Positions 24,971-30,363 of a stretch of DNA of 61,965 nt are shown piece after piece. Within the stretch, counting starts at the first letter, position 1. Each line of letters opens with the position of its first letter. The translations under genes and the position numbers were made by a program. The notes beneath the pieces are model-generated. The model had not been told where the DNA came from. It ran no database searches and was given only the letters and a program-made list of their open reading frames with translations. The DNA is from Myxococcales bacterium. GTDB lineage: Bacteria; Myxococcota_A; Polyangia; Polyangiales; Houyiibacteriaceae. Location of the stretch: the NCBI GenBank assembly GCA_019637115.1, contig JAHBWH010000028.1, positions 1-61,965 on the forward strand, read 5' to 3'.

Positions 24971-25360
24971 TCAGAGCGAGTCGGCGCGTAGCTCGAGAGG
25001 CTCGCCGTCGCCCCCAGTGCACGTGCAGGCGACGAAGCGGGTCTGCGGGTCCCGATCGAGAGAAGGGCCGATGCGCCCCTCTGCGTAGCCCTCCGCACCG
25101 CAGCGCTCGACGCAGCGATCGGCCCGCGCCGCGTCCATCGAGGTGACGCCCGCGAAGCTGGTGCACATGCCGAGACCGAGGCAGCCCAGGGCGATCCACG
25201 TGATCACGCGGCGGCCCCCGCCGCGCTCGCCGCGGAAGAGCTGTCCGAGCACCGTGAGCTGACGCGATTTGGCGGCGCCACCGCTGCCGAAGAGCACCCC
25301 CATGAAGGTCAGTCCGCCGAGGAAGAAGAGCGCGAGGCCGACGACGAGGATGGGTGACAC
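24971..25360 (-). CDS. Small membrane protein with Cys-rich C-terminus
   Basis: Hypothetical protein of 129 aa with a GTG start. Two hydrophobic helices are visible: VSPILVVGLALFFLGGLTFMGVLF (1-24) and VITWIALGCLGLGMCTSFAGV (about 52-72). The C-terminal 55 residues carry CVERCG and ACTCTGG, which could form disulfides outside the membrane. The frame upstream of 25360 overlaps the start of the divergent galT-like gene and is not protein-like. No family was recognised. Confidence 0.65.
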   Translation of the reverse strand: MSPILVVGLALFFLGGLTFMGVLFGSGGAAKSRQLTVLGQLFRGERGGGRRVITWIALGCLGLGMCTSFAGVTSMDAARADRCVERCGAEGYAEGRIGPSLDRDPQTRFVACTCTGGDGEPLELRADSL

Positions 25361-25437
25361 GGGCCGACGATACCCGAGGTTGTCGTCGGCTTCACGAACC
25401 GCTCGACCCCTCGCACCGAGGTGGCATCGTCCGCCCC

Positions 25438-26559
25438 GTGAGCTCGCCGACCTACCGGCTCGATCGTGTGACCGACACGTGGCGCCTCGTGGCCCCCACG
25501 CGAGCGAACGTGCCCATGCCGCTCGGCGCGCACGAGGACGAGCTCCCCGTCCCCCGCACGCGTTGCCCCTTCTGCCCCGGCCACGAGGCCGACGCGGAGC
25601 CCGAGGTCGCGTCGTGGCCGACGGGGGCGCCGTGGCAGGTGCGCGTCGTGCGCAACCGATACCCGCTCGTCGCCCCGCCGGGGGACGCGGGCGTGCCGCG
25701 GGACGCAACACCCGCACCGACCGACGAACACGCCGACGAACACGCCGACGAACACGCCGACGAACACGCCGACGAACACGCCGACGAACACGCCGACGAA
25801 CACGCCGACGAACACGCCGACGAACACGCCGACGAACGCGCCGTCGAACGCGCCGACGAACGCGCCGTCTTCGGCGCGCACGAGGTCGTGATCGAAGGCC
25901 GCGCGCACGAGGGCGACGTGCCCACCTTCGAGCCCAAGCTCTGGCGCGCCGTCTTCCGCACCTTCCGCGACCGCGTCGCCGCGCACGAGGCGGCCGGCGC
26001 CGCGGCGGTGCTCGTGTTCCGCAACCGCGGGCGGCGCGCTGGGAGCAGTCAGCCGCACCCCCATGCGCAGATCGTCGCGTCGAGCGTCGTGCCGAGCGCG
26101 ATCGCCCAACGTGCCGCGCTCGCGCGCAAGCACTTCGAGCGCGAAGGCCGTGCCCTCCTCGACGACGAGCGCGAGCGCGCCCGCGCAGGCGGCCGGCTCG
26201 TCGCCGAAGACGACGCCACGACGACGTTCTGCCCCTTCGCGCCCTCAGCGCCCTTCGAGACGTGGGTCATGCCACGCGCGCCGACGCCCGCGTCGTGCCT
26301 GGATGACGCGAGCGCCGACGCGTTCGCGGACGCACTCCAACGCGCAGCGTCGCGTGTGCTCGTCGCGAGCGGACGCCGCGCTTGGAACCTCATCCTCCAC
26401 CTGCCGCCGTGCGCCGAGCGCGACGCCCCTGCGTCGCGCTGGTATGCCTCGATCCTCCCACGCACGGGGCCTGGTGCGGGCTTCGAGCTCTCGAGCGGCA
26501 CCACCGTCGTCAGCATCGCTCCCGAGCAGGCCGCCGCTGCGCTGCGCGCGTCGACGTGA
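25438..26559 (+). CDS. galT: Galactose-1-phosphate uridylyltransferase-like protein with DEHA repeat insertion
   Basis: HIT-superfamily nucleotidyl transferase (373 aa, GTG start). The zinc-site motif RCPFCPGHE is near residue 42, followed by VRNRYPLVAP. The catalytic H-P-H-A-Q lies in SQPHPHAQIVAS near residue 205. The second domain includes CPFAPSAPFETWVMP and WNLILHLPP. GalT transfers UMP between UDP-glucose and galactose-1-phosphate, but standalone relatives can use other hexose phosphates, and no gal genes are nearby. Residues about 96-143 are an insertion of nine DEHA units followed by DERAVERADERAV, encoded by a 12-base tandem repeat. The flanking enzyme core is intact, so the loop appears to have expanded in frame. 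Confidence 0.8.
   Translation: MSSPTYRLDRVTDTWRLVAPTRANVPMPLGAHEDELPVPRTRCPFCPGHEADAEPEVASWPTGAPWQVRVVRNRYPLVAPPGDAGVPRDATPAPTDEHADEHADEHADEHADEHADEHADEHADEHADEHADERAVERADERAVFGAHEVVIEGRAHEGDVPTFEPKLWRAVFRTFRDRVAAHEAAGAAAVLVFRNRGRRAGSSQPHPHAQIVASSVVPSAIAQRAALARKHFEREGRALLDDERERARAGGRLVAEDDATTTFCPFAPSAPFETWVMPRAPTPASCLDDASADAFADALQRAASRVLVASGRRAWNLILHLPPCAERDAPASRWYASILPRTGPGAGFELSSGTTVVSIAPEQAAAALRAST
25723..25866 (+). repeat. 12-bp tandem repeat inside the galT-like gene
   Basis: Twelve consecutive 12-base units. The first nine are GACGAACACGCC or nearly so, and the last three are GACGAACGCGCC variants. They encode DEHA/DERA repeats and keep the reading frame. The location corresponds to a surface loop before GAHEVVIEG. 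Confidence 0.92.
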
Positions 26560-27932: not shown

Positions 27933-28991
27933 CTACGCGGCGACGGCCCCGCCGGGGGCGTACATCCCCTCGGGCCACTGCGCGGGCTCGCCGCGCGCGA
28001 AGCGGGCGCGTGCCTCGTCGTACGCCTCGTAGCGTAGGAGCGTCGCGCGGCGATGCGCGGCGATCTGGTCACGCGTGCCGAACGCGTAGGGGCGTGGACT
28101 CCGCTTGGGTTGCCTTGGGCGCTGGTGGACGTCGGCGTCCAAGACGCCGACCACGCCGAGGCAATGCGGCGTTGCCGGCGTATCACACCAGGCCTTCAAG
28201 GTCGCGAAGTACGTGTGGGTGGCGACCGACTCCATCCCGGGCAGCTGGCTGAGCATCAGCCGGTGTGTCCGCCAGAAGGCAGCGCGGTCGGGTGGTCGCT
28301 TCGCTTGCTGCCAGGCGGTGCGGTCGAAGAAGGTCGTCGTCAGCTCGTCGTCGTCGCACATCCCCGCGACGGCGATGAACCCTGGCCACTCCTCGAAGCC
28401 GCGGACGAGCCCCGCCTTCTTCGGGTTCTCGAGCACATACCGGACACGCGCCGCCGCCGCGTCCTCATCGAGGATCGGCTGCGCGTCGTAGCGCCGGGGA
28501 AAGACGGGGCCCGTGCGCCCGAGGAGGAGGTTCAGGGACTGCGCGACTCGCGCCAGGAAGTAGCTCATGAACGCGGCGAGGTTCTTGCCGCGCGCCCGGA
28601 TGACGAGATGGATGTGGTTGCTCATCACGACGACCGCGAAGATCTCCACCGCCGGACGCCCCTCCTTCGCGCAGCGTGCCTGAGCCCGCGCGAGCGCCGA
28701 GCTCACGAGGTCGGCCGCCAGCTTCTCGGCCTCGTCGACCGTGAGCTGCATCTGACCCGGCGGTCGCCGCGCGTTGGCGCGTTCAACCAACCGCGCGAGC
28801 TTCTTGCGGAGCCCCGCGCGCTTGGCCTCGACTGCCCGCCGCGCCTCTCGGTTCGGTGGCCTCAGGCGTGAGCACAACAGCGGATGGAGCCAGAAGCGTT
28901 CTTCCATCGTTCGCGTCGTCACGAAGAAGAGTTGGTCCGAGTCTTCGCATCGCAGGGGTCGCGAGCGACGGGCGGGGCGATCTGAGTCCAT
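27933..28991 (-). CDS. REP-associated tyrosine transposase (RAYT, IS200/IS605-like Y1 HUH family)
   Basis: Single-strand DNA transposase-like protein of 352 aa. The HUH metal motif is H126-I-H128 in VVVMSNHIHLVI. The likely nucleophile is Y185 in RVRYVLENPKKAGLV, the usual Y-x3-NP-x-(R/K)-AGL site of RAYTs. PVFPRRYDAQPIL between them is also typical. An insertion-like basic, helical stretch (about 45-110) and a roughly 130-residue C-terminal extension make it longer than the usual 150-250 aa. The ATG at 28991 was chosen because the frame upstream runs into a REP copy. It is flanked on both sides by inverted REP-like repeats (27800-27826 and 29033-29055), as expected for a RAYT with its cognate REPs. 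Confidence 0.87.
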   Translation of the reverse strand: MDSDRPARRSRPLRCEDSDQLFFVTTRTMEERFWLHPLLCSRLRPPNREARRAVEAKRAGLRKKLARLVERANARRPPGQMQLTVDEAEKLAADLVSSALARAQARCAKEGRPAVEIFAVVVMSNHIHLVIRARGKNLAAFMSYFLARVAQSLNLLLGRTGPVFPRRYDAQPILDEDAAAARVRYVLENPKKAGLVRGFEEWPGFIAVAGMCDDDELTTTFFDRTAWQQAKRPPDRAAFWRTHRLMLSQLPGMESVATHTYFATLKAWCDTPATPHCLGVVGVLDADVHQRPRQPKRSPRPYAFGTRDQIAAHRRATLLRYEAYDEARARFARGEPAQWPEGMYAPGGAVAA

Positions 28992-29032
28992 CCCCCCTCT
29001 TCGCGCGGTCGCGCCCGTGGTTGCTCTTCGGC

Positions 29033-29055
29033 AGTCGGAAAGATTGGTGGATCCT
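29033..29055 (-). repeat. REP-like copy B, 42 bases upstream of the RAYT start
   Basis: The plus strand reads agtcggaaagattggtgg followed by atcct, the reverse complement of the array D unit (GGATCCACCAATCTTTCCGACT). It is inverted with respect to the copies downstream of the RAYT gene and lies in the RAYT leader or promoter. Confidence 0.85.
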
Positions 29056-29059
29056 GATC

Positions 29060-29260
29060 GGTGGTGGAATCTGCGCGCCGCTCGTCTGTGGCGGTGGCGT
29101 AGGCGCCCCCTGCGAACCAGGGACCTGCATCGATGACCTCCTCCGCCACGAAGAGAAAGACCGCTGTGAGCCACGCGGCGAGCCCTGCGACGACGTCAGC
29201 CCCACCTGCGCCGGTGAGACCTACTGCGCGGGCACCACCCGAACCTGCCAGAGCCGTTAG
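29060..29260 (+). pseudogene. Possible remnant of a Cys-rich secreted protein
   Basis: A frame just after REP copy B reads GGVGAPCEPGTCIDDLL, then CEPRGEPCDDVSPTCAG and YCAGTTRTCQSR before a stop. The regular Cys spacing resembles secreted Cys-rich proteins and the next gene is also Cys-rich. No start codon or signal peptide lies in frame downstream of the repeat, so the 5' end seems to be lost or was displaced by the repeat. This is tentative. The rest of 28992-29367 shows nothing else. Confidence 0.3.
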
Positions 29261-29367: not shown

Positions 29368-30084
29368 ATGCGTGATCGGAGCCTCTCCGCGCTGGCCGGC
29401 TTCGCGGGGGCGTGGCTGGTGGTCGTAGTGCTGGCCTGCGTGACCACACCTTCCGAGGAGGAGTGCTCGGTCGGTTCGGCCGGTTGCTCCTGCACGCCGG
29501 GCGGCGGCTGCGATCCCGGGCTGGCGTGCGCGATGAATATCTGCCGCGCCGAGGGCTGCTCCTGCGACGTGGACGCCACCTGCACCGCGGGCTGCACGTG
29601 CGACGTCGATTGTCCGGGAGACGGCGGGGTGCGAGACGCGGGGGCGCCCCCGAGCGCGACCTGCGAAGGCACCATCGACGGCTGCTGGCAGAGCTGTATC
29701 TCGACCGGGACCAGCACCTCGGCGTGTAGCGGTGCGTGCCCCATCGGGAACGGCTACGGCTGCTATGCAGTCTGCGCCAGCCGCGGCGAGCCGATCTCCA
29801 CTTGCCGAGGAATCTGCGGGATCGCCGGGCCGCTCGCGGAGCTCGGTTGCGCCGAGGCGTGCGCGGCGCGCGGCGAGTCGACGCCGACCTGCAAGGCGAC
29901 CTGCGGGCTCGCCACCGACTGCGGCGAGGTCGGCTGCGCAGGTGTGTGCGTGCAGCGTGGAGACTCGACTTCGGCCTGCAAGAACACCTGCGTCCTGACC
30001 ACCGCGCGCGGCCGCGAGGCCTGCTACTCGGTCTGCGCAAGCCGCGGCGAGCCCGCGGCAAGCTGCGCCGCCATCTGCGGCTGA
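29368..30084 (+). CDS. Lipoprotein with five C-x3-C-x9-C-x3-C repeats
   Basis: Exported Cys-rich protein of 238 aa with lipobox VLAC (lipidated C24). Residues 32-82 hold many Cys in short spacings (GCSCTPGGGC, GCSCDVDATCTAGCTC). From residue 106 five 19-residue modules repeat: 106-124, 132-150, 161-179, 190-208 and 219-237. Each is C-x3-C-x9-C-x3-C, often with A-S/A-R-G-E-P/S after the second Cys. The repeat period is 29 residues for the last four. Even Cys numbers per module suggest internal disulfides, and the protein ends right after the fifth module. I do not recognise the repeat. The start at ATG 29368 gives the signal peptide; an earlier in-frame ATG lacks one. Confidence 0.8.
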   Translation: MRDRSLSALAGFAGAWLVVVVLACVTTPSEEECSVGSAGCSCTPGGGCDPGLACAMNICRAEGCSCDVDATCTAGCTCDVDCPGDGGVRDAGAPPSATCEGTIDGCWQSCISTGTSTSACSGACPIGNGYGCYAVCASRGEPISTCRGICGIAGPLAELGCAEACAARGESTPTCKATCGLATDCGEVGCAGVCVQRGDSTSACKNTCVLTTARGREACYSVCASRGEPAASCAAICG

Positions 30085-30190: not shown

Positions 30191-30363
30191 GATCCACCAA
30201 TCCGAAAGATTGGTGGATCCTCCCCCTCGGCTCCGGCGGTGGATCCTCCCGGCCGGATGGGTGGCGATCCACCAATCCGAAAGATTGGTGGATCCTCCCC
30301 CTCGTCAGCGATCCAGATCCTCCCCCTCGTCAGCGATCCACCAATCCGAAAGATTGGTGGATC
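30191..30363. repeat. REP-like locus C: three identical perfect hairpins
   Basis: At 30191-30219, 30266-30294 and 30335-30363 the arms GATCCACCAATC and GATTGGTGGATC enclose a CGAAA loop. The right half of each hairpin is the unit found singly in arrays A, B and D. CCTCCC(GGCCGG/GGTGGGG) and CCCCTCG(TCAG) spacers repeat between them. The locus fills the gap between the Cys-rich lipoprotein and the DUF2126 gene (30085-30474), which holds no gene. Confidence 0.92.

What the first reader, a model, noticed from the sequence alone, without database searches (positions are those of the whole stretch)
29368..30084. Lipoprotein with five regular C-x3-C-x9-C-x3-C modules
Seen: five 19-residue modules, four of them with a 29-residue period, and nothing after the last one. 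The spacing is the same in every module. I do not recognise it as a named repeat. Inference: a disulfide-rich surface module, possibly metal-binding or a toxin-like or adhesive stalk.
Basis: seen in the sequence. Interest (0 to 1): 0.5.

Follow-up and report, generated by a model that had tools for sequence, protein, structure and literature searches.

The report
Lipoprotein built from disulfide-stapled helix hairpins
A bacterium related to myxobacteria makes a membrane-anchored protein that ends in a row of five tiny helix-turn-helix units, each probably stapled by two disulfide bonds in the same way as some scorpion toxins and plant defence peptides, but here apparently used as a rigid building block and not as a poison.

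Summary
The gene at 29368-30084 (+) encodes a 238-residue lipoprotein ending in five C-x3-C-x9-C-x3-C modules, starting at residues 106, 132, 161, 190 and 219. Pfam, NCBIfam and PDB sequence searches do not recognise it. Relatives occur in other Myxococcota. Three results suggest that each module is an antiparallel helix-loop-helix with C1-C4 and C2-C3 disulfides. (a) In 46 modules of seven near relatives every Cys loss is the pair C2+C3 (4 modules). (b) In cousin proteins the outer Cys move from 3 to 6 residues away on both sides together (42 of 45 hairpins symmetric), always with x9 between. (c) AlphaFold2 predicts one hairpin per module (window array pLDDT 87.5; 8-module Polyangium homologue 93.3). 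The same pattern defines alpha-hairpinins and kappa-hefutoxins, the best but weak PDB profile hits. All 23 module proteins read with an intact 5' end have a lipobox; some carry an enzyme-like or cytochrome-like part beside the hairpins. Best reading: a lipid-anchored, disulfide-stapled helical-repeat scaffold or stalk. Toxin-precursor and metal-binding readings are less likely. The partner is unknown. New variant of a known kind.

The parts
29368..30084 (+). whole gene, 238 aa lipoprotein
   Evidence: homologues
29368..29436 (+). signal peptide, residues 1-23
   Evidence: hydrophobic stretch before VLAC
29437..29439 (+). lipobox Cys24 (VLAC|VTTP)
   Evidence: same place ILAC in L002 and L003, VPAC in L116
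29464..29613 (+). N-terminal Cys-rich segment (residues 33-82, GSAGCSCTPGGGCDPGLAC...), shared with L002, L003 and L116 and, in part, hit in other genomes of the order
29662..29664 (+). Cys99, extra Cys seven residues before module 1, present in all 7 near-family proteins
29683..29739 (+). module 1 (residues 106-124)
   Evidence: model helices 11-19 and 23-29 (model numbering = residue minus 94)
29761..29817 (+). module 2 (residues 132-150)
   Evidence: helices 36-44 and 49-56
29848..29904 (+). module 3 (residues 161-179)
   Evidence: helices 61-73 and 78-85
29920..29922 (+). Cys185 in the linker before module 4; all 7 near-family proteins have at least one such linker Cys
29935..29991 (+). 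module 4 (residues 190-208)
   Evidence: helices 90-103 and 107-114
30022..30078 (+). module 5 (residues 219-237)
   Evidence: helices 119-131 and 136-143

Best explanation
A lipoprotein anchored by a lipidated Cys24. A Cys-rich N-terminal segment and a short linker carry a C-terminal array of five helix-loop-helix hairpins. In each hairpin two disulfides (C1-C4 outer, C2-C3 inner) rivet two antiparallel helices. The hairpins stack into a short helical-repeat rod (alpha-solenoid) in which disulfides do much of the work that a hydrophobic core does in TPR-type repeats. The rod serves as a rugged extracytoplasmic scaffold: a stalk, or a surface for binding another protein or a glycan. Shown: module pattern, conservation, lipobox, coupled Cys losses. 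Predicted: hairpin fold and stacking. Inferred: disulfide connectivity, cellular location, scaffold or binding role. Unknown: the partner.
For: Pattern, spacing and conservation. Coupled losses: 46 modules in 7 proteins, 42 with all four Cys, 4 lacking exactly C2 and C3 (two in L006, two in L116), none lacking only one; the four may be as few as three independent events. Symmetric spacing in cousins L089, L119, L120, L121: 45 hairpins, all with x9 between the inner Cys; 37 are x6-x9-x6, 5 are x3-x9-x3, 3 are x6-x9-x3, as expected for rungs one or two turns up paired helices; L119-L121 are close relatives of each other. Cysteines other than the lipidated one (and a signal-peptide Cys in L116) are even in number in all 5 full-length near-family proteins (34, 30, 30, 48, 46). 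AlphaFold2: window array pLDDT 87.5, pTM 0.80, ten helices, one hairpin per module; Polyangium 8-module array 93.3, 0.87, 16 helices. VIA-align's best matches are helical-repeat proteins: Z 5.8 (9hny_FX, rmsd 5.1, 124 aligned) and Z 10.9 (5iww_D, a PPR protein, rmsd 6.4, 212 aligned). ILVMFWY is only 14-19% of three arrays. Lipobox in 23 of 23 module ORFs read with an intact 5' end (18 by script; L085, L117, L118, L120, L089 by eye). Hairpins sit beside other domains elsewhere: CotH in L033, esterase in L092, a cytochrome-like C-x-GGYCHGGG segment in L085-L087 and L141 (by eye).
Against: No disulfide was observed. The AlphaFold alignments have only 4 rows; the other four models of the window array scored 79.3 to 65.4, and one of five L042 models scored 30.2. 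Foldseek found nothing at E<=0.001 in PDB or, for the window model, BFVD, and the tool warns that Z below about 13 may be only a common arrangement for helical repeats. In more distant relatives (L086, L100, L144) modules are joined by long Gly/Asp/Lys/Ser linkers, so stacking is not general to the module. No binding site stands out: of 13 non-Cys positions invariant in the near family, 6 are in modules 1-2 and 7 are spread over modules 3-5. No shared gene neighbour was seen that would point to a partner.
Confidence: 0.58

Rival explanations
1. Polyprotein precursor of small hairpin peptides with toxin, antimicrobial or inhibitor activity, cut out after export, as with plant alpha-hairpinin precursors of 5-12 tandem modules.
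For: Same Cys pattern as alpha-hairpinins and kappa-hefutoxins (PMC7191063 passages, which describe plant precursors with 5, 6, 7 or 12 modules). Myxobacteria are known predators (recalled).
Against: A lipid anchor would be an odd start for a peptide precursor; arrays are not cationic (net -2, -14, +2); linkers of the near family are 7 or 10 residues (19 before the last module of the longer arrays) and in the models the 10-residue ones are partly helix, leaving little room for cleavage; in L030, L033, L085-L087 and L092 modules sit on larger proteins.
Confidence: 0.12
2. Spacer only: a length-setting stalk between the membrane anchor and another domain or the exterior, with no ligand of its own.
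For: Copy number varies (1 to 8 C-x3-C-x9-C-x3-C modules); in L085-L087 and L092 the modules lie between lipobox and the C-terminal domain; no conserved patch stands out in the near family.
Against: In the window protein and its near homologues nothing follows the array but one or two residues, so it would hold nothing at its tip.
Confidence: 0.18
3. Metal-binding or thiol-redox protein: the CxxxC pairs hold metal or relay electrons.
For: Paired Cys in helices is also a feature of twin-Cys mitochondrial intermembrane proteins (recalled); cytochrome b-c1 complex subunit 6 is a weak profile hit (9f5x_1I, E 0.087).
Against: C2 and C3 vanish together while C1 and C4 stay (4 of 4 losses), which fits separate disulfides better than a four-ligand site; even Cys counts; export as a lipoprotein favours oxidation (inference).
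Confidence: 0.06

Closest known systems
kappa-KTx scorpion toxins (kappa-hefutoxin 1, OmTx1/2; Pfam PF08095 Toxin_25)
   Same: C-x3-C-x9-C-x3-C with Tyr after C1; best PDB profile hits; C1-C4/C2-C3 connectivity stated in PMC7191063 (passages)
   Different: 22-27-residue single secreted neurotoxins; here tandem modules on a bacterial lipoprotein. PF08095 does not match the window protein, reaches 24.0 bits against cut-off 25 in L086, and rang in 0 of 282 genomes at E<=0.001 (its 14 control genomes were also silent, so absence is not shown)
plant alpha-hairpinins and their multi-module precursors
   Same: motif CX3C-X(4-20)-CX3C (PMC11591084 passages), helix-loop-helix, two disulfides, tandem precursors of 5-12 modules (PMC7191063 passages)
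   Different: plant precursors are cut into peptides; a lipid anchor is a bacterial feature; no direct sequence comparison with plant hairpinins was made here beyond Pfam and PDB
plant thionin helical hairpin (Pfam PF00321)
   Same: 5 of 14 relatives scanned (L030, L085, L086, L087, L100) exceed the Pfam cut-off of 23.6 bits for the whole protein (26.9, 26.5, 50.0, 24.7, 31.7)
   Different: the best stretch covers only the hairpin (about 20 of 46 positions) and the score sums several modules; the window protein does not match; L033, L091 and L114 stay below the cut-off and L002, L005, L035, L090, L092 and L094 show no match; genome search: 1 of 282 genomes at E<=0.001, 22.1 bits, none over the cut-off
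Helicobacter Hcp proteins and Campylobacter Csep1P (disulfide-bridged alpha/alpha solenoids), CagY repeats
   Same: secreted or surface helical repeats with Cys: one disulfide in each hairpin of Hcp and Csep1P, regular Cys in CagY (PMC12904459 and PMC2581425, passages)
   Different: 36-residue SEL1-type repeats with one disulfide per hairpin (Hcp), 38-39-residue CagY motif; here 29-residue repeats with two. No SEL1 or TPR Pfam match at E<=10
TPR/PPR alpha-solenoids
   Same: predicted stacked helix pairs; VIA-align Z up to 10.9
   Different: 34-35-residue repeats with hydrophobic cores (recalled); no Pfam match; Z below the level that the tool treats as telling for helical repeats

Membership tests
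alpha-hairpinin / CS-alpha-alpha hairpin | C1-x3-C2-x(4-20)-C3-x3-C4 | tested here: met
   five of five modules, x9; definition in PMC11591084 (passages)
alpha-hairpinin / CS-alpha-alpha hairpin | helix-loop-helix structure | tested here: inconclusive
   predicted for all five modules, pLDDT 87.5, and all eight of L042, 93.3; predictions only
alpha-hairpinin / CS-alpha-alpha hairpin | disulfides C1-C4 and C2-C3 | tested here: inconclusive
   indirect: 4 of 4 Cys-loss modules lose exactly C2+C3; symmetric x6-x9-x6 cousins
alpha-hairpinin / CS-alpha-alpha hairpin | released as a short bioactive peptide | not testable with these tools
   lipobox and short linkers argue against
Pfam PF08095 Toxin_25 (hefutoxin) | profile score at or over cut-off 25 | tested here: not met
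   no match for the window protein at E<=10; best relative 24.0 (L086)
Pfam PF00321 Thionin | profile score at or over cut-off 23.6 | tested here: not met
   no match for the window protein at E<=10; met by 5 of 14 relatives, on whole-protein scores
SEL1-like / Hcp, TPR, PPR repeats | Pfam repeat profile match | tested here: not met
   0 Pfam families at E<=10 for the window protein
SEL1-like / Hcp, TPR, PPR repeats | alpha-solenoid fold | tested here: inconclusive
   Z 5.8 and 10.9 at best; Foldseek nothing at E<=0.001
bacterial lipoprotein | signal peptide with lipobox Cys | tested here: met
   VLAC at residues 21-24 after a hydrophobic stretch

The most novel reading that the evidence does not exclude
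An undescribed class of bacterial alpha-solenoid with a 29-residue repeat, in which each helix pair is held by two disulfide rungs in place of most of a hydrophobic core. It would have been built independently in Myxococcota from the same minimal hairpin that scorpions, cone snails and plants use for toxins and defence peptides, and be used as a general lipoprotein building block: stand-alone rods, and stalks or tails for esterases, CotH proteins and cytochrome-like domains.
Probability: 0.45. Interest if true: 0.65.

Novelty: new variant of a known kind. Interest (0 to 1): 0.5.

Why it matters
It would show that the disulfide-stapled helical hairpin, known mainly from venoms and seeds, also exists in bacteria as a stackable structural module, and that helical solenoids with few core hydrophobics can be held by disulfides. 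That would give protein designers a natural, very short, probably very stable repeat. It also warns annotators: some myxobacterial lipoproteins pass Pfam's plant thionin cut-off because they carry several such hairpins.

Tried and rejected
Named-family searches with the window protein: Pfam, NCBIfam and PDB phmmer all empty at E<=10. Phages and plasmids by tblastn: no match at E<=0.01 (plasmids also with L086). Viral contigs with A1: 33 pattern stretches, no relative. Genome contigs: the single protein found nothing; alignment A1 gave three relatives (Polyangium sp. 6x1, Polyangium sp. 15x6, Sandaracinaceae MAG Chersky_785), the same contigs, by length, as L005, L004 and L006. A DNA pattern search of the own genome was swamped by low-complexity repeats (167 + 163 matches, reversed control 572 + 655).

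Operon or conserved neighbour: none seen. Window neighbours include a DUF2126 gene downstream and, upstream, phage-holin-family and GalT-like genes; beside L075's copy lies a Tex-like gene (by eye), beside L150's acyl-CoA-dehydrogenase-like (by eye) and FG-GAP genes, beside L042's a kelch-like gene (by eye). I made no systematic comparison; L076, L151 and L152 were fetched and not read.

Module-by-module orthology of the 5-module and 8-module proteins: clear for modules 1 and 2 only; for 3-5 the best partner varies, so I do not claim that the window protein is a cut-down 8-module protein.

Bias of counts: the 83 of 87 hairpins with x9 (the other four x11 or x12) come from 19 ORFs picked by a pattern, the parser tries x9 first, and one of them, in L035, starts at the lipobox and is not a true module. 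In the 46-module count the walker required C1 and C4, but the arrays were accounted for end to end. In one search, 23 of 183 genomes matched; only 6 (own included) have two or more motifs in one frame at the locus. Of the other 17, 11 matches start in the N-terminal Cys-rich part and 6 are weak hits (E 0.002-0.009) over residues 94-232. Of the loci, L093 and L095 show no such hairpin array.

Literature: no paper held the strings CX3CX9CX3C, CXXXCX9CXXXC or C-X3-C-X9-C-X3-C; listings for hefutoxin family/PF08095, thionin with myxobacteria and lipoprotein and Myxococcota Cys-rich lipoproteins show no title on this module. Only this open-access library was searched.

L120 and L089 were added.

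Full report
What is there. The ORF at 29368-30084 (+) encodes 238 residues: a signal peptide with lipobox VLAC (Cys24), a Cys-rich segment (residues 33-82), a linker, and five C-x3-C-x9-C-x3-C modules starting at residues 106, 132, 161, 190 and 219, with one Gly after the last. Spacing is 26, 29, 29, 29. Shuffling the mature part reached five motifs in 1 of 100,000 trials. GC at codon positions 1-3 is 0.59, 0.72 and 0.87, in keeping with a coding frame in a GC-rich genome. In the own genome (8.88 Mb, 434 contigs) the only match at E<=0.001 is the gene itself. The finding's coordinates and description are correct.

Not a named family. The protein has no match at E<=10 in Pfam, NCBIfam or PDB sequences.

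Near relatives. In 183 genomes of the same order, 23 matched at E<=0.01, but only six, the own genome included, have two or more motifs in one frame at the matched locus. So the window's order contains Polyangium. A class-wide search (289 genomes, 12 with matches at E<=0.001) added L116, with the same kind of N-terminal Cys-rich segment and eight modules, and L118, with about four related hairpins, not counted here. L004 and L006 are cut off at their 5' ends.

Distant relatives. A three-module profile (A2) found matches in 17 of 377 Myxococcota genomes at E<=0.01; A4 found 7 of 52 in the class of G389 at E<=0.001. These sets overlap. In 84 strict motifs read, Tyr follows C1 in 57, Gly is at position 9 in 74, Ile follows C2 in 39. 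The modules sit in lipoproteins as beads on Gly/Ser/Asp/Lys linkers (L086, L100, L144), in front of a cytochrome-like C-terminal segment (L085-L087, L141; by eye), in front of an esterase (L092; Abhydrolase_2 35.6 bits, Esterase_PHB 26.1) and behind a CotH domain (L033; 154.1 bits). All 23 module ORFs that I read with an intact 5' end have a lipobox: 18 by script, and L085, L117, L118, L120 and L089 by eye. L004, L006 and L033 were left out because they start at a contig end, and L122 because its frame is broken into pieces.

Why disulfide hairpins. First, among 46 modules of seven near-family proteins, 42 have all four Cys and four lack exactly C2 and C3 (replaced by Ser/Ala, Ala/Gly, Ala/Ala, Ala/Ala). 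None lacks one alone, and none lacks C1 or C4 (the walker required both, but the arrays are accounted for end to end). If two losses per module fell at random on the six possible pairs, four modules with the same named pair would have probability 0.0008; with three independent events it is 0.005. Second, in cousins L119, L120 and L121 (13 hairpins each, close relatives of each other) and L089 (6 hairpins), all 45 hairpins keep x9 between the inner Cys, while the outer Cys lie 6 residues away on both sides in 37, 3 on both sides in 5, and mixed in 3. That is what one-turn and two-turn rungs on antiparallel helices would give. Third, AlphaFold2 gives one helix pair per module: the window array with mean pLDDT 87.5 and pTM 0.80, the Polyangium array with 93.3 and 0.87, from only four aligned sequences each. 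The other models of the window array scored 79.3 to 65.4, and one of five Polyangium models scored 30.2. Fourth, Cys counts outside the lipidated Cys are even in the five full-length near-family proteins (34, 30, 30, 48, 46, derived, with a signal-peptide Cys of L116 also set aside). All seven near-family proteins have an extra Cys seven residues before module 1 (Cys99 in the window) and at least one linker Cys (Cys185 in the window); that these two bond to each other is a guess.

Fold and neighbours in structure space. Foldseek found no match at E<=0.001 in PDB for either model or in BFVD for the window model. The second-look aligner ranks helical repeats first: Z 5.8 for the window array (9hny_FX, rmsd 5.1, 124 residues) and Z 10.9 for the Polyangium array (5iww_D, a PPR protein, rmsd 6.4, 212 residues; 16 of 321 chains at Z 8 or more). 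The tool warns that Z under about 13 may mean only a common arrangement for such folds. Three arrays measured have only 14-19% ILVMFWY and 14-16% Cys, so disulfides probably replace much of the hydrophobic core. This last step is inference.

Comparison with the known. The PDB profile hits are kappa-KTx scorpion toxins (6ats E 0.012; 1hp9 0.05; 1wqc and 1wqd 0.13) and cytochrome b-c1 subunit 6 (9f5x_1I 0.087; 8zno_H 1.4). All are weak and largely carried by the Cys pattern. PMC7191063 (passages) states that alpha-hairpinins, kappa-hefutoxins, OmTx1-3 and conotoxin vil14a share the motif and the Cys1-Cys4/Cys2-Cys3 bonds, that the motif is part of the thionin motif, and that plant precursors carry 2-4 or 5-12 tandem modules. 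PMC11591084 (passages) gives the plant motif as CX3CX4-20CX3C. PMC11722136 (passages) describes CS-alpha-alpha peptides of scorpions. Five of 14 relatives scanned pass Pfam's Thionin cut-off on the whole protein, but the window protein has no match, and a genome search found one stretch, at 22.1 bits, below the cut-off (1 of 282 genomes; its 14 control genomes were silent). PMC2581425 and PMC12904459 (passages) describe the nearest bacterial analogues that I found: CagY repeats, and Hcp/Csep1P solenoids with one disulfide per hairpin. So it works like a disulfide-stapled hairpin, and perhaps like a disulfide-bridged solenoid, but it is not shown to be a member of any of these families; convergence is the simplest reading.

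Function. I commit to a lipid-anchored scaffold or stalk, possibly with a binding role (0.58). The precursor-peptide rival (0.12) is weakened by the lipid anchor, short linkers, lack of positive charge and domain fusions. The pure-spacer rival (0.18) is weakened because nothing follows the array in the near family, but no conserved patch stands out either: of 13 invariant non-Cys positions, 6 lie in modules 1-2. The metal or redox rival (0.06) is weakened by the coupled Cys losses. No partner gene was found.

Novelty. The listings of the literature searches run show no title on this module in bacteria; the library is partial. I rate it a new variant of a known kind.

Noticed in passing
window 30192-30218, 30267-30293, 30336-30362: Three perfect copies of the 27-bp near-palindrome ATCCACCAATCCGAAAGATTGGTGGAT just downstream of the gene (none in 100 shuffles), with related-looking GATCC-rich repeats around 27.3-27.9 kb (by eye).
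   Followed up: partly
window 27933-29174 (-): Product looks like a REP-associated (IS200-type) transposase from recalled motifs such as SNHIHLV; Pfam returned no family at E<=0.001. It lies near the palindromes, as REP/RAYT pairs do (recalled).
   Followed up: partly
window 25354-26559 (+): GalT-like protein (PF01087, 45.5 bits) with an in-frame run of nine DEHA repeats from residue 124.
   Followed up: no
   Followed up: partly
L085, L086, L087, L141: Module lipoproteins share a DAG[ED]WW-x-VD motif after the lipobox and a C-terminal C-x-GGYCHGGG segment that looks cytochrome-like; Pfam names neither part in L085-L087.
   Followed up: no
L030, L085, L086, L087, L100: Lipoproteins that pass Pfam's plant Thionin cut-off on whole-protein scores: a likely source of misannotation.
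   Followed up: partly
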